This document shows positions 1 through 63,741 of a stretch of DNA of 64,000 bases, piece by piece. The notes beneath the pieces were generated by a model. It did no database searches. It was given only the letters and a program-made list of their open reading frames with translations, and was not told where the DNA came from. A program made the translations under genes and the position numbers. How positions within the stretch are numbered: position 1 is the stretch's first letter; every line of letters starts with the position of its first letter. Source of the DNA: Owenia fusiformis (Eukaryota > Annelida > Polychaeta > Sabellida > Oweniidae); NCBI GenBank assembly GCA_903813345.2, contig CAIIXF020000011.1, positions 129,001-193,000 of the forward strand, read 5' to 3'.

Positions 1-3000
1 ACTTACCTAGTCCCATTGTGTGTTTGCCCTCAGTATGGCAAGCACGTAGTTGTGATACAAGTTCAGCACTATAGTATTATAAATAGGAATATAAAGATAA
101 CATAGACTTACCTAGTCCCATTGTGTGTTTGCCCTCAGTATGGCAAGCACGTAGTTGTGATACAAGTTCAGCACTGTAGTATTATAAATAGGAATATAAA
201 GATAACATAGACTTACCTAGTCCCATTGTGTGTTTGCCCTCTGTATGGCAAGCGCGTAGTTGTGATACAAGTTCAGCACTGTCATATTATTAATAGGAGT
301 ATAAAGAAAAGGTAACATAGACTTACCTAGTCCCATTGTGTGTTTGCCCTCTGTATGACAAGCACGTAGTTGTGATACATGTTCAGCACTGTCATATTAT
401 TAATAGGAGTATAAAGAAAAGGTAACATAGACTTACCTAGTCCCATTGTGTGTTTGCCCTCTGTATGGCAAGCACGTAGTTGTGATACAAGTTCAGCACT
501 GTAGTATTATAAATAGGAATATAAAGATAACATAGACTTACCTAGTCCCATTGTGTGTTTGCCCTCTGTATGGCAAGCACGTAGTTGTGATACAAGTTCA
601 GCACTGTAGTATTATAAATAGGAATATAAAGATAACATAGACTTACCTAGTCCCATTGTGTGTTTGCCCTCTGTATGGCAAGCACGTAGTTGTGATACAA
701 GTTCAGCACTGTAGTATTATAATAATTATAAATAGGAATATAAAGATAACATAGACTTACCTAGTCCCATTGTGTGTTTGCCCTCTGTATGGCAAGCACG
801 TAGTTGTGATACAAGTTCAGCACTGTAGTATTATAAATAGGAATATAAAGATAACATAGACTTACCTAGTCCCATTGTGTGTTTGCCCTCAGTATGGCAA
901 GCACGTAGTTGTGATACAAGTTCAGCACTGTAGTATTATAAATGGGAATATAAAGATAACATAGACTTACCTAGTCCCATTGTGTGTTTGCCCTCTGTAT
1001 GGCAAGCGCGTAGTTGTGATACAAGTTCAGCACTGTAGTATTATAAATGGGAATATAAAGATAACATAGACTTACCTAGTCCCATTGTGTGTTTGCCCTC
1101 TGTATGGCAAGCACGTAGTTGTGATACAAGTTCAGCACTGTAGTATTATAAATAGGAATATAAAGATAACATAGACTTACCTAGTCCCATTGTGTGTTTG
1201 CCCTCTGTATGGCAAGCACGTAGTTGTGATACAAGTTCAGCACTGTAGTATTATAAATAGGAATATAAAGATAACATAGACTTACCTAGTCCCATTGTGT
1301 GTTTGCCCTCTGTATGGCAAGCACGTAGTTGTGATACAAGTTCAGCACTGTAGTATTATAAATGGGAATATAAAGATAACATAGACTTACCTAGTCCCAT
1401 TGTGTGTTTGCCCTCTGTATGGCAAGCACGTAGTTGTGATACAAGTTCAGCACTGTAGTATTATAAATGGGAATATAAAGATAACATAGACTTACCTAGT
1501 CCCATTGTGTGTTTGCCCTCTGTATGGCAAGCACGTAGTTGTGATACAAGTTCAGCACTGTAGTATTATAAATAGGAATATAAAGATAACATAGACTTAC
1601 CTAGTCCCATTGTGTGTTTGCCCTCTGTATGGCAAGCACGTAGTTGTGATACAAGTTCAGCACTGTAGTATTATAAATAGGAATATAAAGATAACATAGA
1701 CTTACCTAGTCCCATTGTGTGTTTGCCCTCTGTATGGCAAGCACGTAGTTGTGATACAAGTTCAGCACTGTAGTATTATAAATAGGAATATAAAGATAAC
1801 ATAGACTTACCTAGTCCCATTGTGTGTTTGCCCTCAGTATGGCAAGCACGTAGTTGTGATACAAGTTCAGCACTGTAGTATTATAAATGGGAATATAAAG
1901 ATAACATAGACTTACCTAGTCCCATTGTGTGTTTGCCCTCTGTATGGCAAGCACGTAGTTGTGATACAAGTTCAGCACTGTAGTATTATAAATGGGAATA
2001 TAAAGATAACATAGTCTTACCTAGTCCCATTGTGTGTTTGCCCTCAGTATGGCAAGCACGTAGTTGTGATACAAGTTCAGCACTATAGTATTATAAATAG
2101 GAATATAAAGATAACATAGACTTACCTAGTCCCATTGTGTGTTTGCCCTCTGTATGGCAAGCGCGTAGTTGTGATACAAGTTCAGCACTGTAGTATTATA
2201 AATAGGAATATAAAGATAACATAGACTTACCTAGTCCCATTGTGTGTTTGCCCTCTGTATGGCAAGCACGTAGTTGTGATACAAGTTCAGCACCGTAGTA
2301 TTATAAATGGGAATATAAAGATAACATAGACTTACCTAGTCCCATTGTATGTTTGCCCTCAGTATGGCAAGCACGTAGTTGTGATACAAGTTCAGCACTG
2401 TAGTATTATAAATGGGAATATAAAGATAACATAGACTTACCTAGTCCCATTGTGTGTTTGCCCTCTGTATGGCAAGCACATAGTTGTGATACAAGTCCAG
2501 CACTGTAGTATTATAAATAGGAATATAAAGATAACATAGACTTACCTAGTCCCATTGTGTGTTTGCCCTCTGTATGGCAAGCACGTAGTTGTGATACAAG
2601 TTCAGCACTGTAGTATTATAAATAGGAATATAAAGATAACATAGACTTACCTAGTCCCATTGTGTGTTTGCCCTCTGTATGGCAAGCACGTAGTTGTGAT
2701 ACAAGTCCAGCACTGTAGTATTATAAATGGGAATATAAAGATAACATAGTCTTACCTAGTCCCATTGTGTGTTTGCCCTCTGTATGGCAAGCACGTAGTT
2801 GTGATACAAGTTCAGCACTGTAGTATTATAAATGGGAATATAAAGATAACATAGACTTACCTAGTCCCATTGTGTGTTTGCCCTCAGTATGGCAAGCACG
2901 TAGTTGTGATACAAGTTCAGCACTGTAGTATTATAAATGGGAATATAAAGATAACATAGTCTTACCTAGTCCCATTGTGTGTTTGCCCTCTGTATGGCAA

Positions 3001-4618
3001 GCACGTAGTTGTGATACAAGTTCAGCACTGTAGTATTATAAATGGGAATATAAAGATAACATAGACTTACCTAGTCACATTGTGTGTTTGCCCTCAGTAT
3101 GGCAAGCACGTAGTTGTGATACAAGTTCAGCACTGTAGTATTATAAATGGGAATATAAAGATAACATAGACTTACCTAGTCCCATTGTGTGTTTGCCCTC
3201 TGTATGGCAAGCACGTAGTTGTGATACAAGTTCAGCACTGTAGTATTATAAATGGGAATATAAAGATAACATAGACTTACCTAGTCCCATTGTGTGTTTG
3301 CCCTCTGTATGGCAAGCACGTAGTTGTGATACAAGTTCAGCACTGTAGTATTAAAAATGGGAATATAAAGATAACATAGACTTACCTAGTCCCATTGTGT
3401 GTTTGCCCTCTGTATGGCAAGCACATAGTTGTGATACAAGTCCAGCACTGTAGTATTATAAATAGGAATATAAAGATAACATAGACTTACCTAGTCCCAT
3501 TGTGTGTTTGCCCTCTGTATGGCAAGCACGTAGTTGTGATACAAGTTCAGCACTGTAGTATTATAATAATTATAAATAGGAATATAAAGATAACATAGAC
3601 TTACCTAGTCCCATTGTGTGTTTGCCCTCTGTATGGCAAGCACGTAGTTGTGATACAAGTTCAGCACTGTAGTATTATAAATAGGAATATAAAGATAACA
3701 TAGACTTACCTAGTCCCATTGTGTGTTTGCCCTCTGTATGGCAAGCACGTAGTTGTGATACAAGTTCAGCACTGTAGTATTATAAATAGGAATATAAAGA
3801 TAACATAGACTTACCTAGTCCCATTGTGTGTTTGCCCTCTGTATGGCAAGCACGTAGTTGTGATACAAGTTCAGCACTGTAGTATTATAAATGGGAATAT
3901 AAAGATAACATAGTCTTACCTAGTCCCATTGTGTGTTTGCCCTCTGTATGGCAAGCACGTAGTTGTGATACAAGTTCAGCACTGTAGTATTATAAATGGG
4001 AATATAAAGATAACATAGACTTACCTAGTCCCATTGTGTGTTTGCCCTCTGTATGGCAAGCGCGTAGTTGTGATACAAGTTCAGCACTGTAGTATTATAA
4101 ATAGGAATATAAAGATAACATAGACTTACCTAGTCCCATTGTGTGTTTGCCCTCTGTATGGCAAGCACGTAGTTGTGATACAAGTTCAGCACTGTAGTAT
4201 TATAAATGGGAATATAAAGATAACATAGTCTTACCTAGTCCCATTGTGTGTTTGCCCTCTGTATGGCAAGCGCGTAGTTGTGATACAAGTTCAGCACTGT
4301 AGTATTATAAATAGGAATATAAAGATAACATAGACTTACCTAGTCCCATTGTGTGTTTGCCCTCTGTATGGCAAGCACGTAGTTGTGATACAAGTTCAGC
4401 ACTGTAGTATTAAAAATGGGAATATAAAGATAACATAGACTTACCTAGTCCCATTGTGTGTTTGCCCTCTGTATGGCAAGCACGTAGTTGTGATACAAGT
4501 TCAGCACTGTCGTATTATAAATGGGAATATAAAGATAACATAGACTTACCTAGTCCCATTGTGTGTTTGCCCTCAGTATGGCAAGCACGTAGTTGTGATA
4601 CAAGTTCAGCACTGTCAT
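1..4618 (-). repeat. 105-bp tandem array copied from the end of CCT2 exon 12 plus its 5' splice site
   Basis: About 43 copies of a 105-bp unit (starts at 1, 106, 211 and so on) run from the window edge to the real exon at 4550-4649. Read on the minus strand each unit holds the last 62 nt of the exon (coding [20 protein letters not shown]), the donor GTAAGT, and about 36 nt of intron. Most intron parts end in CTACAG, so each copy looks like a short exon with both an AG acceptor and a GT donor. The array lies inside the intron after exon 12 and continues beyond the window. Many differences between copies are silent, such as ACT/ACA for Thr and CGT/CGC for Arg, but some change residues and one makes a stop. 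Confidence 0.97.
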
Positions 4619-7600
4619 AACCTGCATTGTCTGCGATTATGGTAGGTAACTGCAAGTAAAAATAGTACCTTATAGTTCAAAACTCTGGTTTCTAAAAAAG
4701 GCACAAGTAGAAGATCTAGGACCATTGATTTATATACTACTGCAGACTAAGATGACATGTATATGAGCTAAAGTTCAGAAGAATAACAGTTTTATTTTCA
4801 TTTTGTCTAAAAATGCCCAACCCCTTTATGAAATAAAATTCATTTTTTCACAATGTTTACATCTGGTTTGCACCCTCCAAGAATCAGGTCAACTGGACCA
4901 ATGTAGTAATTGTTTCATGTATACATTTTCAATGATTTTCAGCTTTACTCAGTAGTTACACATACTTGTCTAAGTGCTCTGGCATATGCGTCCATGGCAA
5001 CTGCTTCTTTGCCAGATGTTTTACTTGAAAGCTTAGAGACGGCATCAGCCATCAACATCTCACTGCTACCTAACAACAATAAAATAAAGGGTTTAGTTGC
5101 CTAGCAACAAAAGTATATGAGTTTTATCAGTCTAGCAACAGTAACTGATTCGCACAGCAACAGTAGAATATGGAACTAATTTACTTATTTTGGCTGATAG
5201 GGGATCAAAAATGGGATCTGATACAGGATTGTTTCATGGGATCCAATATGGGATCTGATACGGGATTGTTTGAATATCAACTCTATTTCCTATTTATTTC
5301 CCAGAGAAAACATGTTATTATGGAATAAATGAGATTAATTCAACTTGCAACAGTAATACACATGATTTTTATAGATTACCATAAAAAGAAATTGCCTTTG
5401 AATAGTTCAGAAGGAAAATATTAAAAACACTAAGGTTGCATTTTTGAACTGCCCACAGCACAGGCAAATTGTGCAGCACTTAATGAGCTTTCCCCGCAGT
5501 ATCACAAAAAAGATCAATAAGCCCCACGGAGCTCATCCAAGCTCACATATACAATCACATATACAATGCCTAATAACACTGGGTTAATCTTATCAAGCAC
5601 ACCTGCCCTGCCTAGTCACTAGTGCACCACATGGGTTCCATTAAAATAAAACATGAATTATGTGAATTAATTGTGCTTTGATGCGACATTTTTGTTGAAA
5701 ACATGTGACCATGCAATTTGCGAGGCCCATTGATTCCTCTCGTGACACCCGCGAGGAAAATTCATTAAACACCACGCAATTCACCCGATCCACAGGCAGT
5801 TCAAAATCACAGCCTAAGATAAACAATGTAGTGCATTTAATATGTAATTATTTTCAAAGATCTTACCTCCACCAAACACAGTTCTAGTTTCTTTGACAGT
5901 CTGTTGTAATACACAAAGAGCATCATGCATGGACCTTTCTGCTTCATCTAAGATTTGTTGTGTGGCCCCACGTAATATAATAGTACAAGCCTCTCCTAAC
6001 TTAACACCTACAATGTAATATATTATTTCAATATTAGATGCGTCTAGGATTTGTTGTGTGGCCCCACGTAATATAATAGTACAAACCTCTCCTAACTTAA
6101 CACCTACAATGTAATATATTATTTCAAGATTAGATGCATCTAGGATTTGTTGTGTGGCCCCACATAATAAAATAGTACAAGCCTCTCCTAACTTAACACC
6201 TACAATGTAATATATTATTTCAAGATTAGATGCATCTAGGATTTGTTGTGTGGCCCCACGTAATATAATAGTACAAGCCTCTCCTAACTTAACACCTACA
6301 ATGTAATATATTATTCCAAGATTAGATGCGTCTAGGATTTGTTGCATCACCCATGTTATATTTCACCCAAGGGTGTAGAAGAAATACAGACAAACTGAGA
6401 ATAAGCTTTTTTTGGAAAAAATGTCACAAATTTTCAATACTTTTTGGCTTTCATCATTCCATGTCAGGTCTATTTTCTAAAAGTTAATAAAAAAAACTGA
6501 CTTTATATCACTAGTTTTTTACTTCAAATAGAGCTCCATTTCTTACACTCATGCCTTTGTTTGCCCAATTTATAACTTACCAGAAAATTTTAGAAGTTTA
6601 TCTTCGCCAATCATTATTTCTTCTATAAGATCACAGGTTCCTATTTTAGTGGCCTCAGGACAGTCAAATGTGGATACTATTTCCCCACCTAAAAATCACG
6701 TATTAAAAATGCTTTAAATGTGAAAATTTTAGAATCTGTTCATAGTATCAATATTATTTCATGTTTTTCTGGGACACTTTGTATTTTTGTTATTTCATTT
6801 TAATAACTAAATAGATCTATTGCTTCATAGCACATACTCACCAGTAACAAGTGCTAATCTTTCTACACCCTCAAAGTCTGCATGCTCAATGGCCATAACA
6901 CCTGCATCACTAAACAGCTGTTCGGGATAATTGTAGATGAGTTGTCTAAAACAGAACAAAGGATTTTCAGCAATTTTGTTTCAATAAAACGTCATTCAAT
7001 ATCGAAAATATAAAAATTAACAGAAATCACCAGTTTTGGCTGCTGTTTCCATTTTGGCTATTTTTCATCTTGCTTGTTTTCATAATGATCTGAATGTTTT
7101 CATTTTGGCAGTTACTTAAGTTCATGCAGTGCCATCTAACGAGAAACTAACAAGAAAGAAAAGCTAAACACAACAAATGTATTTGTGTTTTTTGTTTTTT
7201 TACTACGTGTACTACTAAGAAATTAAATTGCAAAATGTATATAAGAACTGAGGTAAGACTATTATTCAAACATTCAAGAAATATGTCAATTAAAATTCTA
7301 AAATGTCAAGCCTGAAGGCAAAATTCTGTCCACACTCTAACAGAATTCTAGGAGCGATTGGTGTGATATTTAAAGTTCACTCACCTATTTATAAACACAT
7401 TCATATCATGTTTGCATATTTTTGCTACTTTTTCTTTCATCTTTTCTTTTTCTGCAAGCTCTAATTCTGCTACCTTGGAGACAGCGTCCACCTTAACTCT
7501 TGAACCAAACACCTAAAACAGATTATAAAATCATATTATATCAAGTGTATTCATTAAATGACCAATGTATGTTACTTTGACGACTTTTGTCAATGTAACA

Positions 7601-10600
7601 AAAGTGATAGTGTAAATGCCAAATTCCAAAACGAGAGGATTTCTAAAGTTTGACTATATTGTCTAACTTTGTGCCAAATTATAATCTACACCTCAACTTA
7701 AAAGAAGGTTTAAATCGAGAAAACAATAACCTCATATCCAGGAAGTTCATCCATTTTGTTACATTGACATTCCATCAGTGTAATAACTAGTTGTGGAACA
7801 GAGATTGTGACTGTACTCATTCACTTTGCTTAACTTAGGAATGTATCTTTCCTTGAGACTATTATCCCATCTTAAAACTAATATTTCCCACCTTTTGACT
7901 TAATAATATCCCACTTAAAGGAACAAAATGCGTAAATGAGGTCTCAATTTTGATCTTCAAAGTATTTCCAATGGATTATTAAGTACCCGATCTTTCATTT
8001 GACACCAAAAACAGCTCAAACAGATCATATCAGAGTTGACACTAGGTCATGAAAAAATATTTTCCATCTATCAATTTATATATTTCAAGTTTTTAGCAAT
8101 GCCATAAAAGATGGCATTGTTGTTTGCATTAATTATCCATTCATTTTTGATAGGATTTTCAACCATACGTCATCTTTCAATCTGTCAACTTTCGAGTTAT
8201 TTAAAGCATACACTAAAGTGAAAGGTGGTAATTCACTTCTTTTGATCTCTGAACTTCGAATGCTGTTTTCTATGCAAGTGATTTTTTTTCACTTCAGTAT
8301 TGACACAAATTAAAGTTTTTATCATATTTGATTGAGTAACAGTTCTCAAAAACCATTTTGTCCCTTTTCCTTCAAAAATAGGCGCATTGCCTGTTTAATA
8401 CAATATCTCATCTTTTGACTTAAAAAGTCCACAGATACTAGTTTTCTGCATGAAAAAAAAAGTCCAAATTCTGCAATCTTTTAAAACGATGAAAATTGAC
8501 GTAGAAAACGGAGAACTGCACGTCATTAGCGAACTCGCTTTAGCGAATTTAAACGTGATAGAATGTTGAATTTCACGGTGAAATCGTACTTGTACTCAAT
8601 AATGATTGATTGTTGGACATAAACAGACACTCTTCAAATACCCCGCAAAGGTAGGAGATCGTAAAATATGTAATTTCTGGAAATTCTGGTAATTCCGCGG
8701 GATTTTCATGAAAATCAGGGATTCTGCAAAAAATTTAAGTTTTGTCAAATTCCGTCCACGCCGCGGAATTACGGAATACTAGTATCTATGGACTTTATCC
8801 CATCTACATGTATATAGTCTATGCCAGATATATCAGTGTCCACTGGTGTGTATGCAATGAGTATGCCATATATACCTTTATTTTATCAGTGTCCATTGGT
8901 GTGTATGCGATGAGTATGCCATATATACCTTTATTTTATCAGTGTCCATTGGTGTGTATGCAATGAGTATGCCATATATACCTTTATTTTATCAGTGTCC
9001 ATTGGTGTGTATGCGATGAGTATGCCATATATACCTTTATTTTATCAGTGTCCACTGGTGTGTATGCAATGAGTATGCCATATATACCTTTATTTTATCA
9101 GTGTCCACTGGTGTGTATGCAATGAGTATGCCATGTTTTGAATCAAGTGTTGGGCTGGGAATGGGTATAGATATACATATTATAACGGTTACATACAGTT
9201 CAGAATAGGTTGAAGTATGTAGAAGAGTTTTTGGAAGAAATCGATTGAAATTTGTGACCAAATATATTGGTCACAGATTCAGATGTTCGAGGGAAGAGAT
9301 TTATGTTTATTCCACATATTCATAATCATTGTTCACAATATTAGTGGTATTTTTGTATGTTATTGAGTGTTTGTATCAGATCTAATTCATCTTGAAATAT
9401 GGTATTATCAAAAATAATATAAAGATTTTCAAAACTTGCGCCTATTTCTTATTAAACAGATAATCTATTTAGGATTTCATATTATCCGATTAAAGAATGA
9501 TAATTCTAAGAAGTCACCTTCATAAAATTAAGCAATAAAAAATATTCTAAATAATATGAATATCAAATAATATTTTGATACTTATTCATACATGATATAA
9601 TACACTTTGCATGCATGTGTTCAAATATAATCCAATTAAGTTCAAAATGGAAAAGAAATTAACAGATTAAAGTTCCCTTATTAATTTTCTCTGAATGCAT
9701 AAGCTAAATTAATTGTTTGATTCATTTGTTGAAAAGTTACTGTTTTAATTATATTCATTTATATATATGTATTACAAAAAAAGTTGAGAACAAGCCCTTC
9801 AAACACTTCAAAGGTAATCCAAGTTAAAACAAAATGCTTTGCTTAATCCATTAAGAAAAAATGTCTTCTAAATTCAGAAAAAATATTGAGGCACATTATA
9901 ACATTAAACATTTTGACACAGACTCAATTTGTTTTCTTATATGCACCCATAATACAGAAAATAAACGTGGGTACGAGTTGTCTTGGGTACCAGTTGACTT
10001 GGGTACGAGTTGTCTTGGGTACAAGTTGTCTTGGGTACGAGTTGTCTTGGGTACGAGTTGACTAGGAAGCTGCAATGAGTATGCCATATATACCTTTATT
10101 TTATCAGTGTCCATTGGTGTGTATGCAATGAGTATGCCATATATACCTTTATTTTATCAGTGTCCACTGGTGTGTATGCAATGAGTATGCCATATATACC
10201 TTTATTTTATCAGTGTCCACTGGTGTGTATGCAATGAGTATGCCATATATACCTTTATTTTATCAGTGTCCACTGGTGTGTATGCAATGAGTATGGCATA
10301 TATACCTTTATTTTATCAGTGTCCATTGGTGTGTTGGCAATGAGTATGCCATATATACCTTTATTTTATCAGTGTCCACTGGTGTGTATGCAATGAGTAT
10401 GCCATATATACCTTTATTTTATCAGTGTCCATTGGTGTGTTGGCAATGAGTATGCCATATATACCTTTATTTTATCAGTGTCCTTTGGTGTGTTGGCAAT
10501 GAGTATGCCATATATACCTTTATTTTATCAGTGTCCACTGGTGTGTATGCAATGAGTATGCCATATATACCTTTATTTTATCAGTGTCCATTGGTGTGTT

Positions 10601-13600
10601 GGCAATGAGTATGCCATATATACCTTTATTTTATCAGTGTCCACTGGTGTGTATGCAATGAGTATGCCATATATACCTTTATCTTATCAGTGTCCACTGG
10701 TGTGTATGCAATGAGTATGCCATATATACCTTTATTTTATCAGTGTCCACTGGTGTGTATGCAATGAGTATGCCATATATACCTTTATTTTATCAGTGTC
10801 CACTGGTGTGTATGCAATGAGTATGCCATATATACCTTTATTTTATCAGTGTCCACTGGTGTGTATGCAATGAGTATGGCATATATACCTTTATTTTATC
10901 AGTGTCCACTGGTGTGTATGCAATGAGTATGCCATATATACCTTTATTTTATCAGTGCCTATTGGTGTGTATGCAATGAGTATGCCATATATACCTTTAT
11001 TTTATCAGTGTCTATTGGTGTGTATGCAATGAGTATGCCATATATACCTTTATTTTATCAGTGTCCATTGGTGTGTATGCAATGAGTATGCCATATATAC
11101 CTTTATCTTATCAGTGTCCATTGGTGTGTTGGCAATGAGTATTTTAGCATTCTCTACTCTCTTAGGCTGATTGACTCCTACACGTTTATCAAGTAGGAAA
11201 CCCTCATCAAGGTATGAGTCTTTTAATCCTCCACCTAGCTTCTTAATTATCTGAATGGCATCTAGGTTACCACTACCCTGTAATCATTTAAAAATAGAAT
11301 TATATCAATATCAGATTGTGATTGGTCAAATCATGTCACATGATCTGCAATATCAGATTGCGATTGGTCAAAACATGTCACATAATTTAGAATACTAGTT
11401 TATGATTGGTCAAATCATGTCATATGATCTACAATATCAGATTGTGATTGGTCAAATCATGTCACAGGATCAAGAATACAAATTTGTTATTGGTCAAATC
11501 ATGTGAGGGGTGATGTGAAAAGTGGGTTCACACCAGTTGGATTTATAACATTTCAATTGGTCATTACATAAATGACCTACAAGACAGACAGGCTCTAGCA
11601 TATTATCACTGCTTGCAGCTGGAAGTTATCTGGACAGCAACCTATTTAGGATGTGTGAATATATGACAAAGTATGCATTTTGAAAACAGGGAATATTATT
11701 GTTCACTGTGACACTGCCATGAAAAGATATGTGGCCATTATCTTGATATATTTCAAACTTATTTTAGCATATCACTTACTTCAAGCAAGAACTAACTTTT
11801 TTGCACACTGACTGTTTTAGCAAGTACTTACTTTGAGACGTAAAATGGCATCAACCGCAAGATTTGAGAAATAATCCTTCTGTTCTGTGAGAATCTTAGA
11901 GCTGAGAGTTGTTCTTGCAATATTCATGAGATCTTCTCTGAACTTTACTGGATCAGACCTAAAATATGTCACAACCACAACACTGGTTTGTAATTGGTCA
12001 AATTATGTAACATAATCTACAATATAAGTTTGTGGTTGGTCATCATACAGACTTTTATTTGGTGATCAGTCAAATCATTAATTAAAGAGGGGTCGATGTG
12101 AATTCTGCAAACATCCAATTCTGTAATTTTTTTATTTTCAATACTCTCAATTTTGAGAATATGCTTTATTTTCTTCATTTTGAGTTGGGTGCAACAATCC
12201 TTTCCAAAATCTTGAGTGGATGTTGCCACTGAGATTGCTTTCAAACTGGGAAATCAATTATGATCATGTCTAATGGCATTAAAATGATAAGAGATGAAAA
12301 GAATGTAATCAGCAAGGAATAAACAACACAAAACTTTCATGATCCAAGAGGTACTTACCCATGATCCCTTGCAAAACTTGTGAGTGCCTCTCTGGCTACA
12401 TCTGTTGCTTTACGCCACCCAGCAATGATGGTCTGTGGGTGCATCTTCTGCTCAATCAGCTGCTCAGCCTCCTGGGAAATAAAGATGGGGCTGGTTAGGA
12501 TATAGTGTCACAAGAAAAAGATTAATATAATAGTTGCACAATAGAATATATTGTGTTCAAAAGTCATCCTTTTTGATCAATCACAGGAGATGTCAATTTT
12601 ATTCAGTTTTTAGTTTCACCGGCAAGTACTCACCTTTAGCAGTTCATAGGCAAGTACTCACCTCTAGCATTTCACAGGCAGGTACTCACCTTTAGCATTC
12701 CACAGGCAAGTACTCACTTTTAGCAATTCAAAGGCAAACACTCACTTTTAGCAATTCACAGGCAAGTATTGTGACTATCCTCTAGCATTTCACAGGCAAG
12801 TACTCACATTTAGCAATTCACAGGCAAGTACTCACATTTAGCAATTCGCAGGCAAGTACTAACATTTAGCAATTCACAGGCAAGTCTTTCTCATTTCACG
12901 GGCAAATACTCACCTCTAGCAATTCACAGGCAAGTACTCACATTTAGCAATTCACAGGCAAGTACTCACAATTAGCAATTCACAGGCAAGTTTATATTGT
13001 GACTTTATCAATTCACAGGCAAGAACTCGCATTTAGCAATTCACGGGCAAGAATTGTGACTTACCTTTAGCATTTCACAGGCAAGTACTGTAACTGAAGT
13101 TGTTCCATCTCCAACTTCATCATCTTGAACTTTTGAGATCTCTGAAATATAAATAATTTTTTTTATGTCAAATGATCTCTTATACTCTTAAATCTTGTCA
13201 CATGATCATGAACATTACTTTGTGATTGGCCAAGTCATGTCTTCTAGGAATGTCCTAGCAGTTATGTCTCTTGAATATACAGTATCACTAATGTTGTGAC
13301 TTACAAGTATGAATGATAAATATCAGGTGTTAAGATGCAATAATTCTAGAAACTCCTATCTGACTCACCTACTAGCACTTTAGCAGCTGGGTTGTCTACT
13401 CCAATAGACCGCAAGATGGTGGCGCCATCATTTGTCACCTGGATTCCTCCATTTACAGGGTTACTGCTCTGTAGGATCTTGTCCATACCCTTTGGTCCTA
13501 AAGTACTCTTAATGAGCTCTCCAATTGCAATTGCTCCAACAAAAGAGGACATGCGAGCAAACTCAGACTTTTCCTCTTCACCTCCTGCTTTCAGGATGGA

Positions 13601-19084: not shown

Positions 19085-22000
19085 ATGGGGAAGAAGAAGG
19101 GTAAAAAGAGTGGTGCAAAGAGCACCAGCGGGAAAAAGAAAGGAAAGAGAGGGAAGAAGACGGCAGAACCACAAATAACTGCACAAGAAGCAATATTAGC
19201 CTACCAGTAAGTAGAAAATACAATATTAACCTAACAGTAAATACAAGAGACAATATTAGCTTACCAGTAAATACTAGGTGCAATATTAGTCTACCAATAT
19301 TGAGTAAATATAAGACCCACTATTGGGCTACCAGTAAGTGCAAGAAGTATCATTTGGCTACCAGTGTACAGGAGGCAATATTAGCCTTGTAACCCTAATG
19401 TACCAAAGAATATTATATTAGCCTCCAGTAAATGGTGTCGGTGTCACAGATGACTCAAAAGGAAAATGAGGAATCTCAAATAAAATATACATCATCATAG
19501 GTATAATGTCATTATAGGTATGCATTACAGGCCCGTAGCCAGAATTTTCCAAGGGTGGGTTCACTTTTCCCAAAAATTCTAGGGGTTCACTTTGGCAAAT
19601 TTGGCCAAAAATCACTCAAAAAATAGTCAGAATGGTGAAAAACTGCATGATTTTCAGAGAAATTTTGGCCATGGTGGGGGGTTCGCCTGGCTACGGGCCT
19701 GCATTAGTCATCTTATCATCATAGGTATATATAAATCATCATTAATATTTATCATCATTATTCATAGGTGTATTATCATCATAGGTATGTTTTAGTCAAC
19801 TTATCATTATAGGTATATTGTCATCAAAGGTGTGTATTAGTCATCTTATCATCACAGGTTTATTGTCATCATAAGTATGTATTAGTCATCTTATCATCAT
19901 AGGTATATTGTCATCATAGGTGTGTTAGTCATCTTATCATCATAGGTATACTGTCATCATTGGTGTGTATTAGTCATTTTATCATCATAGCTATATTGTC
20001 ATCATAGTTGTGCATTAGTCATCTTATCATCAGAGGTATATTGTCATCATAGGTGTGCATTAGTCATCTTATCATCATCAGGTATATTGTCATCAAAGGT
20101 GTGTATAAGTCATCTTATGATCATAGGTATATTGTCATCATATGTGTGTATTAGTCATTTTATCATCATAGGTATATTGTCATCATATGTGTGTATTAGT
20201 CATCTTATCATCATAGGTATATTGTCATCACAGGTGTGTATTAGTCATTTTATCATCACAGGTATATTGTCATCATAGGTGTGTATTAGTCATCTTATCA
20301 TCATAGGTATATTGTCATCATAGGTATGTATTAGTCATCTTATCATCATAGGTATATTGTCATCATAGGTGTGTATTAGTCATCTTATTATCATAGGTAT
20401 ATTATCATCATAGGTGTGAATTAGTCATCTTATCATCATAGGTATATTGTCATCATATGTGTGTATTAGTCATCTTATCATCATAGGTATATTGTCATCA
20501 CAGGTGTGTATTAGTCATTTTATCATCACAGGTATATTGTCATCATAGGTGTGTATTAGTCATCTTATCATCATAGGTATATTGTACTCATAGGTGTGTA
20601 TTAGTCATCTTATCATCATAGGTATATTGTCATCATAGGTGTGTATTAGTCATCTTATTATCATAGGTATATTGTCATCATATGTATGTATTAGTCATCT
20701 TATCATTGTGGCGAAGTTGAGTCTCTCTATCTTTTACAAAACATGAAAACAAATATAGTTAAAAATATTAATTTATTAAAGAAAAGCCAAAGTCCAAAAA
20801 TATCATTTCAATCAGTTTTTGGTTAGTCCCGAGTTCACACAACGAGGTTCTGAGGTTCCACATGCCAAAAATGCCTCTTTTATATCTTAATTTTGAGGTG
20901 GGCAGAGCCGAAATAAGAGGTCTTATCCAATAAAATATTAGGAAATCCCATTAACTAAAATTGGCCTAAAAATGAATGTTTAATTTTATAAAATGTCAAT
21001 AAGAAATAGTGATGATTTTCTGCCCACGAATCTTGAATGTTTACCGAAAGTTTGAGAATTTGGCAGAATTTGGTGGGAAAGGAATGTCTAGACAAAACCT
21101 CTGAGCCTTGTCTCATGAACTCTGGATGTTTAATCTAATTATCCAATTTAGTTCATTATCTAATTTATGTCCTAAACACATATTCATAGGTAAATTTTTC
21201 CCCTAAAAAGTATACAATTATTCGTAAAATGTGATGTAGAATATAAAGGTATAAACATTTGCAAAGTATATACAGCAGTATTGATGTTTTGGTCAGTTGT
21301 ACTCTGGGTCGTTAGGTTTAATCGCTTTTTACTTTGTTTATCAGAAATTTGCAGTCTTCAATATGATGCCAAAAACTATCGAAACTTATAAACATCTTAA
21401 CTAAACATTGCAAAATTTCCCATCAGTTGACTTCATTTATCATTGTCTGTCACTCATATCTCAAGATTAATTCTTTCATTTGATTGGCTCTAGATATAGT
21501 TCATGCCTAAAAACTGCTCTAACATGATGATAAAACATTAGAAATTAAACTGTTGATATTGTGAAATATCACACTGAGTTCAAAGATCCCCAAAACAACT
21601 GTTATAATACAAATATAAACTTATCAAAAATACGCAATAATTATAAACATGAGTAACAGAAAAAGATCATCATGACATCAACTGATGTGAAGTGAAATAA
21701 GTAGACTGACCAACGAGGTCAGCTATGACTTCATCACATCATCACAGGTATATTGTCATTATAAGTGTGTATTAGTCATCCTATCATCATAGTCATCATA
21801 GGTGTGTTAGTCATCTTATCATCATAGGTATATTGTCATCATAGGTGTGTATTAGTTATTTTATCATCATAGCTATATTGCCATCATAGGTGTGTATTAG
21901 TCATCTTATCATCGTAGGTATATTGTCATCATAGGTGTGTATTAGTCATCTTATCATCATAGGTATATTGTCATCATAGGTATGTATTAGTCCTCTTATC

Positions 22001-45566: not shown

Positions 45567-45623
45567 GTACGTTTCCAGTGTAAATGTTTACCATAAAAGT
45601 GTCGGAAAAGTTAAAGGAAAATA

Positions 45624-51487: not shown

Positions 51488-54400
51488 TTATTGAGCCTGC
51501 GCCGCAAGTTTTTGAGCTTGCTTTTTGGCTTCTTTTTCTAATTTTTCTTTTAGTTCTTTCTGTTTAAAAAAGTCCCTTGTTGCTTCTTGTTCTTCTTCAG
51601 ATGAGAGGTAACTGAAAGCAGAATAAGACAACATTGAAGTTTAAATCAAAATATTACATTAAACAGCACAACCTGTCATTGTACATGTATATCTCTGAAT
51701 AACTCTCAAGTCTCAACAATTCTCAATGTGATGTTTCTTCCAGTCCCATTTTTTAGTTTCATGTTAAACAAACTTGAACTGTAAACACAGGGCACCTGTA
51801 AATCAGAACAAACAATGTAATTCAGATTAAACAGGTTTTAGAAATCATTCAACTTTAGGGAGTTTATAAACCTACGTAAAGCCCTGTTTAAATTGTGCAT
51901 AATAATAAGAAAAATATTGTAACTTACTAATATTTGATAAACCTAGAGCCCTGTGTTAGTTGTGCGCATTCATTGGAAAAATGGCACGCAAATAGTAGTA
52001 AATTCCTTGGCTGTACTTTCCAGGCAAATCTCATGAATAACATGGAGTAAATTGAGAGAGCTGAAAATATAAAATAATCGTTTGTACGTGCCAAAACATT
52101 TGTCATTTATATGTGTATTTTTAACCATATTCTCTGCAATTAGGACCTAGGGTGATTAGAAAATTGAAAATACATCCTTCAGACCAATATATAAGGGTTT
52201 GCGCTTATATAAAAGAAGTAAAAATCCCCCGGAATTTCATGTATGCCAATTTTTCAACAATTTAAAATCAATATTAAAAAATTGTACATTGTTTCTAAAT
52301 CTCAGAAATGATACTTTATAACAATGTTTCATATTTGTAACAGATACCTGCCAATTACCATATGTCAAAAATGACACCAGTCAATTACCTGAAGTCAAAA
52401 ATGATACCTGCTAATTACCCAAATTCAAAAATGATGCCTGCCAATTACCTTAAGTCAAGAATAATACCTGCCAATTACCTAAAGTCAAAAATGATGCCTG
52501 CCAATTACCTTAAGTCAAGAATAATACCTGCCAATTACCTAAAGTCAAAAATGATACCTGCCAACTACTCAAAGTCAACAATGATACCTGCCAATTACCT
52601 TAAGTCAAGAATAATACCTGCCAATTACCCAAACTCAAAAATGATATCTGCCAATTACTTAAAGTCAGAAACGGTACCTGTCAACTACCCAAAGTCAAAA
52701 ATGATACCCGCCAATTACCTAAAGTCATTTTTCCACTTATCATTTCTGGATTCCTTTTAGTGTCTGCTATTGCTGCTAGGGGGAGCCCCCAGTTGGCCAC
52801 AGGACCCCAGAAATGCTGAAAATACAATGTTAGATAAGATGTAGATAATGGATAGATATATACCATTGGATGGCTACATATCATTGAGAATATATACCAT
52901 TGGATGGCTAGATATCATTGAATTAATGAATAAACATAATTATAAACATGGTTATGACATGTTTTATGTTTTTTTCTTGAAGTCAATATGAGACCCTTTT
53001 AATTAGAAATTTGTCATCTAAACAATTTTTAGTAAATTCAAAATTATCAAACTCATTTGTTTAATTAAAAAAGGCATAATATAACTCTCCGACAAAATCT
53101 ACTTAAAGTATATTTCAAGTAAATCTCATTTATAGTGTTTGATATGGTGCTAGTTTCTTTGATATTTGAATTTTAATTATCTGAAGTGAATGCTGTCAGT
53201 ATTTTAGAATGACTAGTATTTATGAAATCCCTAGTATTTATGAAATTAATCAAGTTGAAAAGCTGAATTTAATTTTGATGAACATTATGTTGATAAGTTG
53301 ACTTAACTCAGTTCAATTCCCCATATCAGTTCCACTATCTACCAATGTCATTTGTGGGCAAGATGAGCACATTAATGAGATTATAGAGGAGGGAAAACCC
53401 CAGGGTTCAGAGAGGACATTGTATTATAATGGAATTTTTTATTGAGAAGAAACCGTCGCTGATTGGTCAAATCGACAGACAAATGACATCATTCAATGGC
53501 GGTTTGAAAATATTCTAAAAATGCTTTGAATAATATAATGTTAATTTCTGGCATATTATTATTTTATCAAGATTTAAAGAAAAATGTACAGAATATGCAA
53601 ACAAAAATTAAAACATCACAACAACGATGTGTGGTTTTCAGAAACTTGCTGGATAAAATTCGAACAAAGTCAAACAAAGGTGGTAAGCAAGAGATGTAAT
53701 TACATATATCTCTGTTATCTCTAAGCTGTGCTCAGGGATTTTCCCTCCTCTTTGAGATTATTAAACAGATGTCAAAAATAACAAAAGTGACAGTGAAATG
53801 TAAGTAGTACTTACAGTGCTGTTAATGTCGATGTTGTTTGTTGATGTTGTTTGTTTTCAATGACAGGATTGTTTGCAGGCAATTGGATTGATTGTTTGTT
53901 GATTGTTCATCATTACATGAATCATCAGATTGTTTGTTCATCGCAACATCAATTGTAGGTTGTTTGTTCATCATTACATCATTCATCAAGTTGTTCGTTC
54001 ATCGCAACATCAATTGTTCATTGTTCGTTTATCATTTATCAGGTTGTTTGTTCATCGCAACATCAATTGTAGGTTTTTGTTCATCAAAGCGGCAATCATC
54101 GGTGTTTTTAAGAAAAAGAGAAAGACATACAGTATAAATAATATGATTATGCCAAATCATTATAAATTCTGGAAGTTTTGATACACTTTACTTTGAGCAC
54201 ATGTTAGTACCGTTAGTAACTATGTTTTTTCATATAGATGGCAATGCAATCTTTATTTATGAGAGATTAGAATCATACCTACATGTACCACTCATTAGGC
54301 ATTTAGATATGATACCTCTGTGTGTGTCTGAGAATATATATGCACAGTAAAGTAAAGTAACGATAAATTTCTGGAATATCGCAAAAATTTACTCAAAATT

Positions 54401-55835: not shown

Positions 55836-55893
55836 CTTTGGAACGAGACTTAAAACCGGACGCGAAGTCAAACGAGATTTTAAAATTTACAAA
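55836..55893. promoter_or_regulatory. Bidirectional start region of MPC1 and CSTF2
   Basis: Only 58 bp separate the two start codons, too few for two full promoters and leaders. The transcription starts must overlap each other's first exons or use this shared core. No TATA box is seen; the segment has ACGCGAAGT and CGTTCC. Confidence 0.7.
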
Positions 55894-58800: not shown

Positions 58801-61800
58801 TAAATTTGATGTTCCTTGGCAAGGTAAGATTATTTGTGGAAATTTTGGATTCTTGCAAATGTGTGACTTGCAAGGCTATACTCCTTGAAACTTTCAAAAA
58901 TTAACCTAATTTCACGGTCTTCATGCTAGCTTTGGGGACCCATGCACCTCCAATTCATAGTTAAAAAAATGCATTTAAATGTGAAGTTTTCTTTGACATA
59001 GTCAGGAAATGCATTCATATATAAGGAAAACCGATACAAAATTTTGTGACTTTACCAAAAAAATATGGCTGCCATTTTTTTGTACTTTAGAATAACTTTA
59101 CCATTACCTTAATCGATTGTTATATATATTTTAATTTAGCCAACTGAAGTGGGATTTCATTTCAAAATGGCCTCCATTTTTCTGCCGAGTGAGCTGTATT
59201 AATGGCAGGTCCTTGAGTTTGAGGCAGACCCTAAGATTCGGAATATTTGATACAAGTCCTTTGGACTTGTAAGTCAAAAATTTACAAGTCCATCCAAAAA
59301 ATACAAGCCAAAAAGGACTTTTAAATCTGAACGTTACAAGTCCAATAAATCACTTACCATATTCTTTAGGGGCGCTTAGAAAAATCAGAATAATAGAGTT
59401 GTCCAACTGAGCTCTATATGTACTTGGTCCTGAAGACCCCCTCCCCCACCAACCATCTGTGTTTTTAATGTGCCCATATATGAAAGAAGAAAAACAGGAA
59501 TTTCATGAGGCTAGTAAAGTTTTCTTGCCAAAAATCAGAAACATCAGAACGGGGTATGAGCATATCTCTGCAATAATGGCATGGATTGTTATTGGAGAGT
59601 TTACCGTAAAGATCGCTAAATGAACCAAGAATCAATTGCAAAAATTCCCAATAGAGCCCTGCGAATTGAATGAAGAGTTTTCCCGGATTATCTTTATCAT
59701 TTCCGCAAAAGATCGTCGGATATTTATCTAGTGTTATACCTCAAGATCCCACTCAAGTTAACTGTAAAAGTCTTAAGAATATCGAGAAATGTTAAAAAGA
59801 GAAAGAAAATTTTATTCTAAAGTTCATGACCTTGACCGTCAAGTTCACATGCGCAAACGGCAGCAAATTTAATTGGTTATTGCGAGCTGAAGTTAGGCAT
59901 ATAAGCCATTGAGATCACGCCTTACTTACGTGTGCGAGCGGAAGTAAGCAGATTTATAAATTTGAACCAATGAGGATGCGACTTACTTACCTGTTTGGAT
60001 CGGCATCCACGGAAAAACAAAATGAAAAATGAAATTGAAGTTTCAAACTTTTATTCATATTACCGCGGATCAAGGAAACCATGACCAATTATGACGTATA
60101 TAGTCAAACAAGGTAAGCTCATAGGTCGTTTTGAAATACGCCAGGGGGACTTGTATTTTGTGACGAAGCACGCCAGCCACTAAAACTAGACTCGGGTAAA
60201 TAAGGGGTATTCTCTGCCATAGGAATTTCCCACAGATGGCAGAATTTTTCTTGGGAAATACCTCCTAAAGAAAGCAAATCCTGATATCTGTGGAATTTCC
60301 GAACAGACCCTTGGCATCAGGTGAAAATCTGGGGCATTGCCACCTGATCAGTTACCGTTTACGTTAGCATGACCATATCGATAAAAGGATATGTCTAATT
60401 TGAAGTTTCAATAAAGAAATCGTATAAAACAAAAATATTGAAGATCGCCACTCTCTTTCATGTCTGTATCTGGCTTGTTACACCATGGCTCCCTTGAGGC
60501 GCCATCAGGGGAGTGCCAGATTCATTGATATAATTCCTCAGTTTTGTGAAGTGGAACTTTTAAAATGGTAACAATCTGCACACACTTTCTGGGGTTTCAA
60601 TAACAGCCGACAAAACGCCGCTTTAAATCCCTGTTACGCCGGTTTAAATTTTGAGAAAAAAAAATTGAAAAATAAAGTTTTACTGTGGAGGACGGGTTTG
60701 AAGAGTTCCATCAAATTATTACTGTGGGGGATGGGTTTGAAGAGTTCCACCAAATTATTATTGTGGAGGATGGGATTGAAGAGTTCTACCAAATTATTAC
60801 TGTAGAGGATGGGTTTGAAGAGTTCTACCAAATTATTACTGTGGGGGATGGGGTTTGAAGAGTTACACCAAATTATTACTGTGGGGGATGGGTTTGAAGA
60901 GTTCCACCAAATTATTATTGTGGAGGATGGGATTGAAGAGTTCTACCAAATTATTACTGTAGAGTATGGGTTTGAAGAGTTACACCAAATTATTACTGTG
61001 GGGGATGGGTTTGAAGAGTTCCACCAAATTATTATTGTGGAGATGGGTTTGAAGAATTACACCAAATTATTACTGTGGGGATGTGATTAAAGAGTTCCAC
61101 CAAATTATTACTGTCAGTGGAGGATGGGTTTGAAGAGTTCCAAAAATTATTACTGTAGAGGATTGGTTGAAGAATTCCACCAAATTATTACTGTGGGGGA
61201 TGGGGTTTGAAGAGTTACACCAAATTATTACTGTGGAGGATGGGTTTGAAGAGTTCCACCAAATTATTACTGTGGATGATGGGTTTGAAGAGTTCCACCA
61301 AATTATTACTGTGGAGGATGGGTTTGAAGAGTTCCACCAAATTATTACTGTGGAGGATGGGTTTGAAGAGTTCCACCAAATTATTACTGTGGAGGATGGG
61401 TTTGAAGAGTTCCACCAAATTATTACTGTGGAGGATGGGTTTGAAGAGTTCCACCAAATTATTACTGTGGAGGATAGGTTTGAAGAGTTCCACCAAATTA
61501 TTACTGTGGAGGATGGGTTTGAAGAGTTCCACCAAATTATTACTGTGGAGGATGGGTTTGAAGAGTTCCACCAAATTATTACTGTGGAGGATGGGTTTGA
61601 AGAGTTCCACCAAATTATTACTGTGGAGGATGGGTTTGAAGAGTTACACCAAATTATTACTGTAGAGGATGGGTTTGAAGAGTTCCACCAAATTATTACT
61701 GTGGAGGATGGGTTTGAAGAGTTACACCAAATTATTACTGTGGAGAATGGGTTTGAAGAGTTCCACCAAATTATTACTGTGGAGGATGGGTTTGAAGAGT

Positions 61801-63741
61801 TCCACCAAATTATTACTGTGGAGGATGGGTTTGAAGAGTTCCACCAAATTATTACTGTGGAGGATGGGTTTGAAGAGTTCCACCAAATTATTACTGTGGA
61901 GATGGGTTTGAAGAATTACACCAAATTATTACTGTGGAGGATGGGTTTGAAGAGTTCCACCAAATTATGACTGTGGAGGATGGGTTTGAAGAATTCCACC
62001 AAATTATTACTGTGGGGGATGGGGTTTGAAGAGTTCCACCAAATTATTACTGTGGAGGATGGGTTTGAAGAGTTCCACCAAATTATTACTATTAGATGAT
62101 CTTTCTGCATTTCAGTGGGGAACATTTCTTACGACACAACTGAGGAACAATTGAGGGAAATATTCAGCCAAGTTGGACCAGTCATTAGCTTCAGGTAAAT
62201 TTGTGCTTCATTAAACAATGGGTGCTTCATTTCTGAATGTGTGCTCTATTAGATGGGTGCTTCATTTCTGAATGTGTGCTCTATGGTTTGAATGTGTCAT
62301 TACTGAATGTTCGCTCTTAAATGCTCGCTTAATTATTGAATTGGTGCTTTATTGTATGTGCGATTTATTACTGAATCTGTGCTTTATCAATTGCTGGATT
62401 TCAGTATATGCTAAGGTGCTCAAACCAATATACTAGCAATATTTTTGTTCTTTTTCTGTAGGCTGGTATATGACCGAGAAACTGGGAAACCAAAAGGTTA
62501 TGGATTCTGTGAATATGAAGACGTTGAAACTGCACAGAGTGCTATGAGGAACCTCAACAACTTTGACCTGAGTGGACGTCCTCTGAGAGTTGGCGTGGCT
62601 GCAGGGGAACAGACAGCCAAAGAGGAGAGTCGGGCAATGCAGCAAGCTCTTGGCGGAGTAGCACTTGAGGTCAGTAGGGGGAGTAGCACTTGAGGTCAGT
62701 AGGGGGAGTAGCACTTGAGGTCAGTAGGGGGAGTAGCACTTGAGGTCAGTAGGGGGAGTAGCACTTAAGGTCAGTAGGGGGAGTAGCACTTAAGCTCAGT
62801 AGGGGGAGTAGCACTTAAGCTCAGTAGGGGGAGTAGCACTTGAGGTCAGTAGGGGGAGTAGCACTTAAGCTCAGTAGGGGGAGTAGCACTTAAGCTCAGT
62901 AGGGGGAGTAGCACTTAAGCTCAGTAGGGGGAGTAGCACTTGAGGTCAGTAGGGGAGTAACAATTGAGATAATAGGGGGAGATCACTTTGATATTTGAAA
63001 TTTTCCAGGTTTAAATTAGTGATGAATGCCATGTTGTGTAACTAACTACCAAGAAGTTGTAATAATTCTTATTCTTATAGTTAACTCTTGTGAACCATTT
63101 GGGATTATACAATCAGCTTCTTAATCAAATACAACTTTTCTAACTTTTTGCAAGCTGTGACTCTCTTCATTCACATCCACACTTTGCCATCTGAATTAAA
63201 TATGCTTTTTGACTTGATATTATGAAATAAATCTTTCCAAATATGTTTTAGAATCTCCTATAGCTACCAGGGTTGAATTTGAACATTTTAAACTGACCAT
63301 AAATAAAACTTAAATTTTTCTAAATTTTTATTTCAGAGTCCATATGGAGAAGAGGTTGAGCCTGAAAAAGCCCCAGAAGCCATATCTAAAGCTGTGGCCA
63401 GTTTACCACCAGAGCAAATGTTTGAGCTCATGAAACAAATGAAGGTATTCTGATACTATTCAAAAATTGAACTTATGTATTATATCAAATTAAAATTTAT
63501 TTCACCATTTCACATATCAATGGGTTAAAAGTCATGACACTAAGTTGATGAAAGATATTGTGTTTCATTTGTTTAACATATTTTACTTGTCTTAACATTC
63601 ATTTAATGCTGTTTGTTGTAGTTGTGTATCCAAAACAACCCAAGTGAGGCCCGCAACATGCTCCTGCAGAACCCACAACTTGCCTATGCTCTGCTACAAG
63701 CTCAGATTGTAATGAAGATTGTTGATCCTCATGTTGCCATG
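55894..63741 (+). CDS. CSTF2: Cleavage stimulation factor subunit 2 (CstF-64), first 5 exons
   Basis: CstF-64 binds the GU-rich element downstream of poly(A) sites during 3' end processing of pre-mRNA. Exons: 55894-55981, 62116-62194, 62462-62669, 63337-63444, 63622-63741, frame kept throughout, continuing past the window. The RRM has RNP2 VFVGNI (split between exons 1 and 2) and RNP1 KGYGFCEY (exon 3). Exon 4 and 5 give the hinge that binds CstF-77 and symplekin: [33 protein letters not shown] and [18 protein letters not shown], almost as in human. The N-terminal leader [16 protein letters not shown] is longer than human, which I take as lineage-specific. The frame is open further up to an ATG at 55804 inside MPC1 exon 1, but the ATG at 55894 is preferred. 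The Gly/Met-rich C-terminal half is outside. Confidence 0.95.
56102..56515. mobile_element. hAT-type MITE with GAAAATTG 8-bp duplication
   Basis: The right end, inverted, reads CACTAGAGGCAATCTGCGCG; the left end GAGTCGGGGCAATCTGCGCG. Arms of about 45 bp share GCAATCTGCGCGAGATT and TTCGGTTTTT. GAAAATTG flanks at 56094-56101 and 56516-56523. It is 414 bp and lies in CSTF2 intron 1. Confidence 0.85.
57540..59108. mobile_element. TTAA element with about 400-bp terminal inverted repeats
   Basis: TTAA at 57536-57539 and 59109-59112 flanks a 1569-bp element that begins GGTAATGGTAAAGTTA and ends with its complement. The arms match, with some divergence, for about 400 bp each (57540-57950 and 58715-59108), sharing AAAATGGCAGCCATA, GGAGGTGC and CAAGGAACATCAAA words. 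A smaller hAT MITE is nested between the arms. No transposase seen. Confidence 0.85.
58137..58706. mobile_element. hAT MITE nested in the TTAA element, ATAGAAGT duplication
   Basis: TAGAGCTGGCATC at the left and GATGCCAGCTCTA at the right, flanked by ATAGAAGT at 58129-58136 and 58707-58714. The 8-bp duplication and TAGAG tip are typical of hAT. 570 bp, no transposase. Confidence 0.88.
59113..60679. other. CSTF2 intron 1, mixed repeat remains
   Basis: Contains a segment with ACAAGTCCTTTGGACTTGTA palindromes (59253-59345) and, at about 60228-60300, an inverted relative of 55612-55670 sharing CCCAAGAAAAATTCTGCCAT. Both pairs look like remnants of short dispersed elements. No exon seen. Confidence 0.5.
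60680..62092 (+). repeat. 39-bp array in CSTF2 intron 1
   Basis: About 36 copies of TTATTACTGTGGAGGATGGG plus TTTGAAGAGTTCCACCAAA. The period is 13 codons, so long frames stay open on both strands (for example 61167-61970, 267 codons), but the strict periodicity and lack of a start or a splice context argue against coding. It ends 24 bp before the exon 2 acceptor. Central copies (61240-61640) are nearly identical, marking recent expansion. Confidence 0.95.
62200..62400. repeat. Degenerate GTGCTTCATTTCTGAATGTG array in CSTF2 intron 2
   Basis: Five or so decayed copies of roughly 25-45 bp fill most of this short intron between exons 2 and 3. Confidence 0.65.
62670..62965 (+). repeat. 25-bp array from CSTF2 exon 3 end plus 5' splice site
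   Basis: Twelve copies of GTCAGTAGGGGGAGTAGCAC TTGAG follow the exon. AGTAGCACTTGAG is the exon end (codons GVALE) and GTCAGT the donor. Reading past the donor gives a TGA in one unit. TTGAG and TTAAG forms alternate in a pattern that suggests block duplication. Confidence 0.95.

What the first reader, a model, noticed from the sequence alone, without database searches (positions are those of the whole stretch)
1..62965. Minisatellites seeded on splice junctions in all four genes
Ten tandem arrays in this window carry a copy of the neighbouring exon edge and its splice site in every unit: CCT2 exons 12, 6 and 3 (donor) and 10 (acceptor); CCDC83 exons 1 and 7 (donor), 2 and 8 (acceptor); MPC1 exon 3 (donor); CSTF2 exon 3 (donor). 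The array always begins exactly at the real junction and extends into the intron. With about 60 splice junctions in the window, ten is far too many for random placement of arrays. Unit lengths differ (25 to 150 bp), so this is not one repeat family; the shared feature is the junction itself. Inference: either the duplication process favours exon-intron borders, or duplications seeded there are tolerated because the true site stays outermost. Known background: the tandem-duplication model of intron gain uses AGGT words. I know of no description of such systematic arrays.
Basis: partly seen in the sequence, partly recalled or inferred. Interest (0 to 1): 0.95.

Follow-up and report, generated by a model that had tools for sequence, protein, structure and literature searches.

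The report
Minisatellites spanning exon–intron junctions ("mirages")
In this animal genome segment ten of the borders between coding pieces and introns have been copied head-to-tail into the neighbouring intron, splice site included; the phenomenon was named "mirages" in lancelets, but the density here is striking and hints that duplication, or its survival, favours such borders.

Summary
Rebuilt models of CCT2, CCDC83, MPC1 and CSTF2 give 57 junctions. A scan that ignores the repeat finder recovers these ten, plus one isolated match 1.4 kb away. Two points fail: arrays start 9–66 bp inside the exon, and the kind is already described, as amphioxus "mirages". Placement is non-random in this window: 10 of 31 array intervals cross one junction, against 2.2–2.6 in shuffles (0 of 2000 reach 10) and 2.9–4.9 of 23 families under uniform seeding in repeat-collapsed introns (P 8e-5 to 0.011). 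Raw junction coverage is not raised (10 against 20.5). Arrays fill 49% of intron, 8% of intergenic DNA. Most likely: junction-spanning duplications are tolerated because splicing takes the exon-proximal site, and they grow as ordinary minisatellites; a further 2–4.6-fold junction excess is unexplained. Host unidentified; no RNA or relatives available.

The parts
1..4615 (-). Array at CCT2 exon 12 donor: 105-bp unit = last 66 bp of exon 12 + AG|GTAAG donor + rest intron; 44 donor sites (the real exon ends at 4550), cut by the window edge
4550..4649 (-). CCT2 exon 12
5945..6344 (-). Array at CCT2 exon 10 acceptor: 96-bp unit with TTGTAG|GT + first 63 bp of exon 10; 4 acceptors; reading frame open throughout
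10071..11142 (-). Array at CCT2 exon 6 donor, proximal block (53-bp unit, 20 copies, AAG|GTATAT)
8831..9134 (-). Same exon 6 donor unit, distal block (5.7 copies), separated from the first by 936 bp
12615..13089 (-). Array at CCT2 exon 3 donor (28-bp unit, about 17 copies; GT intact in 13 of 16)
19183..19296 (+). Array at CCDC83 exon 1 donor (30-bp unit, CCA|GTAAGT, degenerate, 3.8 copies)
19085..19206 (+). CCDC83 exon 1 (coding part)
23008..23558 (+). Array at CCDC83 exon 2 acceptor (55-bp unit, 10 copies; AG intact in 9 of 10)
28272..30147 (+). Array at CCDC83 exon 7 donor (about 154-bp unit, 11 GT-bearing sites including the real one) running into a 102-bp derivative at 29840-30147
31738..32186 (+). 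Array at CCDC83 exon 8 acceptor (75-76-bp unit, 6 acceptors)
52343..52727 (-). Array at MPC1 exon 3 donor (30-bp unit, 9 bp exonic, GT intact in 13 of 13)
62655..62988 (+). Array at CSTF2 exon 3 donor (25-bp unit, 13 copies, GT intact in 7 of 13; a GT-to-CT subclass recurs inside the array)
24976..27155 (+). Contrast: intronic array without a junction (44-bp unit), 63 bp after the CCDC83 exon 5 donor
60680..62090 (+). Contrast: intronic array without a junction (39-bp unit), 25 bp before the CSTF2 exon 2 acceptor

Best explanation
These are junction-spanning minisatellites of the kind called mirages. A short tandem duplication arises whose segment happens to span a splice junction (shown: units hold exon edge plus splice site). 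It is tolerated because the exon body stays joined to only one copy, the exon-proximal one, and splicing by exon definition takes the site that makes the shortest exon, so the mRNA is unchanged (inferred; no RNA data). The array then grows and is homogenised like any minisatellite by slippage or unequal exchange (inferred from near-identical inner copies and variant subclasses that recur inside arrays), while the real exon copy is kept by selection on the protein (suggested by one array: the real exon 12 copy has an Asp codon where 40 of 44 copies have Tyr). The genome has very active minisatellite growth in introns. On top of that, junctions are hit about 2 to 4.6 times more often than the nulls predict; a seeding preference near exon borders fits best, but is not proven.
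For: Ten junctions with exon edge and splice site in the units. Splice dinucleotides intact in 124 of 134 copies (real ones included) counted over ten array blocks, CCDC83 exon 7 not included, so decoys are not purged. All 44 exon 12 donor sites found keep GTAAG, and the 72 bp around them match the real one at 69-72 positions. Asp codon GAC in 4 of 44 copies (1, 2, 41, 42), TAC or TAT in 40. Of 113 decoys found by pattern in nine arrays (MPC1 not examined) 4 would give an in-frame, stop-free exon (CSTF2 redone), so the exon-proximal site is probably the one mainly used. Excess over chance. Arrays cover 48.8% of intron and 8.0% of intergenic DNA. The 13 arrays that cross no junction also lie nearer to junctions than uniform (median KS p 0.001, four distances set by hand).
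Against: No transcript data: use of the exon-proximal site is inferred from intact reading frames. The excess falls to P = 0.011 if introns are assumed short when seeded, and the test was made on the window that prompted it. Collapsed intron lengths include possible later insertions, which inflates the excess. In the repeat-finder-free scan junctions recur at 19% against 11.5% for intergenic windows and 50% for intron interiors, so junctions are not repeat-rich as such. Exon 10 acceptor decoys (3 of 3) would be in-frame and open, so altered proteins are not excluded there.
Confidence: 0.65

Rival explanations
1. Seeding is mechanistically targeted: something about exon borders (for example stalled transcription or R-loops at splice sites, or short homology between donor and exon words) makes tandem duplications start there, so mirages are a product of a junction-linked mutation process rather than of a generally repeat-prone genome.
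For: 10 of 31 array intervals cross one junction against 2.2-2.6 in shuffles and 2.9 of 23 families expected under uniform seeding. Arrays that miss junctions still sit close to them. Arrays concentrate in introns over intergenic DNA, 48.8% against 8.0%. Junction arrays are not older by identity than the others (median 94.0% against 89.25%, ten against ten, p 0.26).
Against: Exonic start points scatter from 9 to 66 bp inside the exon, no fixed offset. Shared words at duplication ends were not tested systematically. One window only.
Confidence: 0.35
2. Survival refuge: duplications seed anywhere, but arrays at or near junctions last longer because deletions that would remove them tend to cut the exon and are selected against.
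For: Would explain both the spanning and the near-junction excess.
Against: Predicts that junction arrays are older and more diverged; if anything they are more uniform (94.0% against 89.25%, not significant). Arrays can shrink internally without harm.
Confidence: 0.2
3. Plain chance plus tolerance: introns here are half minisatellite, so some arrays will include an edge; no bias is needed.
For: With collapsed intron length capped at 500 bp, 4.9 of 23 are expected and P = 0.011. Plain coverage of junctions is below a shuffle (10 against 20.5).
Against: 0 of 2000 shuffles reach ten single-junction arrays, with or without barring placements that swallow an exon.
Confidence: 0.2
4. The decoy sites are functional, for example regulating splice choice or adding repeated peptides.
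For: Decoys keep their sites (124 of 134 copies). The exon 10 acceptor array is open in frame: 3 of 3 decoys give an in-frame, stop-free exon, which by the 96-bp unit would add multiples of 32 residues.
Against: 109 of 113 decoys examined would shift the frame or hit a stop. Intact sites are expected anyway in young arrays.
Confidence: 0.04
5. Remnants of intron gain by tandem duplication (AGGT model): the intron itself arose between two copies.
For: Units contain AG|GT words at several junctions; PMC3087553 proposes mirages as a source of new introns.
Against: Where the opposite junction of the same intron lies in the window it has no copy of the unit: the opposite ends of five introns do not recur, and in CCDC83 introns 1 and 7, where both ends carry arrays, the units differ. 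The opposite end of CCT2 intron 12 lies outside the window.
Confidence: 0.03

Closest known systems
Amphioxus 'mirages' (Adh3, globins BflGb6 and BflGb9, troponin C, PGBD5)
   Same: [quoted passage not shown] inner copies homogenised and cluster boundaries excluded (PMC3087553: passages from abstract, section 16 and figure legends; PMC3902484: one passage)
   Different: Here ten junctions in four of four genes within 64 kb, one with at least 44 copies; the cases in the passages read are one or a few per gene with few units. Host species here not identified, so it is not known whether this is a cephalochordate. Length and somatic instability not testable here.
Intron gain by tandem genomic duplication (Rogers model, cited in PMC3087553; potato RdRp case PMC4974935, search listing only)
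   Same: Tandem duplication carrying AG|GT words at an exon
   Different: There the duplication creates an intron between two exonic copies; here only one border of an intron is multiplied by a given unit
Ordinary intronic minisatellites / VNTRs
   Same: Unit sizes, homogenisation; 13 of the 23 intronic array families counted are of this sort
   Different: Units do not include a working splice junction

Membership tests
Amphioxus-type mirages | Tandem units that each span an exon-intron boundary | tested here: met
   Ten junctions, (CCDC83 exon 1 the weakest)
Amphioxus-type mirages | Both 5' and 3' boundaries can be affected | tested here: met
   7 donors, 3 acceptors
Amphioxus-type mirages | Splice signals kept in many but not all units | tested here: met
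   124 of 134 copies intact in ten blocks; 7 of 13 in CSTF2
Amphioxus-type mirages | Inner copies homogenised, end copies less so | tested here: inconclusive
   Examined for one array only: GAC variant in copies 1, 2, 41 and 42 of 44 and lost in the middle, but the last copies 43 and 44 carry TAC/TAT
Amphioxus-type mirages | Regular splicing not disturbed | not testable with these tools
   No RNA held; open spliced frames are indirect
Amphioxus-type mirages | Length polymorphism and somatic instability | not testable with these tools
   One haplotype only
Amphioxus-type mirages | Cephalochordate host | not testable with these tools
   No genome held, no animal collection on hand; species not identified
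Intron gain by tandem duplication | Both ends of the intron derive from copies of one duplicated exon segment | tested here: not met
   For nine of the ten junctions the opposite junction carries no copy of the unit, or an array of another unit; for CCT2 intron 12 it lies outside the window

The most novel reading that the evidence does not exclude
In this lineage tandem duplication is directed to exon-intron borders by a process tied to transcription or splicing, so that a large share of genes (four of four here, 10 of 57 junctions) carry arrays of their own splice sites. This would be a genome-wide source of decoy splice sites and of raw material for new introns, and may lie outside lancelets.
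Probability: 0.3. Interest if true: 0.85.

Novelty: new member of a known kind. Interest (0 to 1): 0.58.

Why it matters
The arrays are a natural experiment on splice-site choice: at least 43 near-identical AG|GTAAG donors follow the real one in a single intron of the housekeeping gene CCT2, yet the coding frame requires the first. If the excess at junctions holds genome-wide it would point to a mutation or survival process tied to exon borders, and give young examples for the proposal that such duplications feed intron gain. The phenomenon looks little studied: in the listings of the eight paper searches made here (several listings were capped) I recognised and opened two papers that describe it, both on lancelets; the other listed papers were not opened.

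Tried and rejected
The first placement of CCDC83 exon 1 at 19432-19500 was rejected: in-frame stop and wrong phase for exon 2. The exon is 19085-19206, and its donor also carries an array. The 45-bp AGGT-rich arrays at 19703-22939 are therefore taken as intronic, not on a junction. A CCDC83 'exon 9' at 32502-32567 was dropped: the 452-aa frame is continuous without it. Exon 6 (27477-27545) was kept in the 57 junctions although the frame is open with or without it. MPC1 exon 2 was sought by pattern and not found. A search for relatives of one LINE frame in viral contigs, to identify the host, gave none. Three PDB hits to the CCDC83 product (E 0.041-0.046) were judged unspecific coiled-coil matches. 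CCDC83 identity rests on exon-level similarity to a recalled human sequence and a Pfam hit below its cut-off. Assembly error was judged unlikely because units carry internal variants and the spliced frames are open, but it cannot be excluded without reads. A first listing of exon 12 copies found only 8 because of the matching mode and was replaced. One search printed CCDC83 and CSTF2 out of frame, and CSTF2 still so, through wrong exon 1 ends; mended. Rows dropped before counts: the conservation count omits CCDC83 exon 7; the decoy count omits MPC1 and counts only sites found by pattern; TRF rows below score about 100, and some overlapping rows, were left out; one search uses 23 intronic families (20 without the two-copy ones, then 2.7-4.4 expected, P 3e-5 to 0.004), with CCT2 intron 12, which runs off the window, given an assumed length of 800 bp; array identities were typed without the two-copy arrays (ten against ten). 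In one search the distances of four arrays in multi-array introns were set by hand. 'Intergenic' includes CCT2 intron 1, which could not be placed; without the truncated CCT2 intron 12 the intron coverage is about 42% (arithmetic).

Full report
What was checked. The window is animal DNA with CCT2 (minus), CCDC83 (plus), MPC1 (minus) and CSTF2 (plus). No genome is held for it. Exons were found with recalled human proteins as probes and fixed at splice sites. Pfam confirms chaperonin, MPC, RRM and CSTF2 hinge domains. CCDC83 rests on exon-level similarity to the recalled human protein and a Pfam hit below its cut-off (DUF4618, 26.5 against 34.9). Spliced CCT2 (476 aa) and CCDC83 (452 aa, start to stop) are open, CSTF2 (201 aa) too. 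CCT2 exon 1 and MPC1 exon 2 were not located, so CCT2 exon numbers assume one exon before the first one found.

The ten arrays. TRF and the exon table (with exon 1 of CCDC83 and CSTF2) give arrays at CCT2 exon 12, 6 and 3 donors and the exon 10 acceptor; CCDC83 exon 1 and 7 donors and exon 2 and 8 acceptors; the MPC1 exon 3 donor; the CSTF2 exon 3 donor. Units carry exon edge and splice site. Exonic bases within the array are 66, 42, 25, 63, 24, 38, 54, 9 and 15, and about 57 for CCDC83 exon 7 (coordinates). So arrays begin inside the exon, not exactly at the junction. A scan without TRF, asking whether 30 bp across each junction recur within 1.5 kb at 77% or more, finds 11 of 57 junctions: these ten, and the CCT2 exon 2 acceptor by a single 24-of-30 match 1.4 kb away. 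The CCDC83 exon 1 donor is just as weak in this scan (one copy at 80%) and rests mainly on its TRF array (3.8 copies, 77% matches). Control rates of the same scan are 11.5% of intergenic, 4.2% of exon-interior and 50% of intron-interior windows, 600 windows each.

Is it more than chance? Raw coverage is not: shuffled arrays would cover 20.5 junctions on average, ten are covered. The distinctive class, an array crossing exactly one junction, holds 10 of 31 array intervals against 2.2 in plain shuffles and 2.6 when placements that swallow an exon are barred; 0 of 2000 shuffles reach ten in either case. The fairer null lets one unit seed anywhere in the repeat-collapsed intron: 2.9 expected of 23 families, ten seen, P = 8e-5; with collapsed introns capped at 800 or 500 bp, 3.8 and 4.9 expected, P = 0.0014 and 0.011. 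The 13 arrays that span no junction also lie nearer to junctions than uniform (median KS p 0.001, four distances in multi-array introns set by hand). Arrays occupy 48.8% of intron and 8.0% of intergenic DNA (10.5% without the LINE); 'intergenic' there includes the unplaced CCT2 intron 1, and without the truncated, array-filled CCT2 intron 12 the intron figure is about 42%. All of this comes from one window chosen because the pattern was seen in it.

What the copies look like. Splice dinucleotides are intact in 124 of 134 copies, real ones included, across ten array blocks (CCDC83 exon 7 is not in that count, but 11 GT-bearing sites were found there). In the exon 12 array all 44 donor sites found keep GTAAG, and their 72-bp donor regions match the real one at 69-72 positions. 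A codon reads Tyr in 40 of 44 copies, while the real exon, copy 2 and copies 41-42 have Asp; the last copies 43-44 have Tyr. This fits homogenisation inside with the real copy spared, in the one array examined. In CSTF2 a GT-to-CT variant recurs in the array. Using a decoy would nearly always break the protein: of 113 decoys found by pattern in nine arrays, 4 give an in-frame open exon, three of them at the CCT2 exon 10 acceptor and one at the CCDC83 exon 2 acceptor (the CSTF2 frame was corrected and recounted as 6 decoys, 0 open).

Mechanism. A tandem duplication of a segment spanning a junction leaves the exon attached to one copy only, so the real site is always exon-proximal; that geometry is not evidence of anything further. 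Exon definition favours the nearest site (established knowledge; not tested here), so such duplications are nearly invisible to selection and can grow like other minisatellites. That accounts for tolerance. The 2-4.6-fold excess needs more: biased seeding near exon borders, or longer survival there. Identity does not show junction arrays to be older (median 94.0% against 89.25%, ten against ten, p 0.26), which leans against survival but decides nothing.

Known or new. PMC3087553 (passages from abstract, section 16 and figure legends; [quoted passage not shown] PMC3902484 (one passage) adds PGBD5 and cites Adh and troponin C. The original Adh3 paper is not held. So the kind is known; what I did not meet in those passages is the density and a test of excess at junctions. 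Whether this animal is a lancelet could not be settled: GC is 34% and CpG observed/expected 0.55 outside the main arrays, and no animal relatives could be fetched.

Verdict. Observation confirmed with corrections; interpretation partly supported; a dense new case of a known, apparently little-studied phenomenon.

Noticed in passing
27477-27545 and 28260-28328: CCDC83 exons 6 and 7 are both 69 nt, both phase 0, similar in sequence (RALETLDDF... / RAMGTMDKY...), and both align to one stretch of recalled human CCDC83; the protein stays open with either or both. They look like duplicated, possibly mutually exclusive exons.
   Followed up: partly
42118-46883: A LINE on the minus strand: ORF1 with CCHC zinc knuckle, ORF2 with endonuclease and reverse transcriptase, split between two frames at about 43.7 kb.
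   Followed up: partly
55835-55894: MPC1 and CSTF2 lie head to head with start codons about 60 bp apart, suggesting a shared bidirectional promoter.
   Followed up: no
19703-22939: A 45-bp array in CCDC83 intron 1 carries two ATAGGT words per unit though it is not on a modelled junction, and is interrupted by about 1 kb of other sequence (20707-21730).
   Followed up: partly
9135-10070: 936 bp of other sequence, including a 16-bp repeat array, splits the CCT2 exon 6 donor array into two blocks; origin not determined.
   Followed up: no
1-64000: Tandem arrays make up about half of intron DNA but under a tenth of intergenic DNA.
   Followed up: yes
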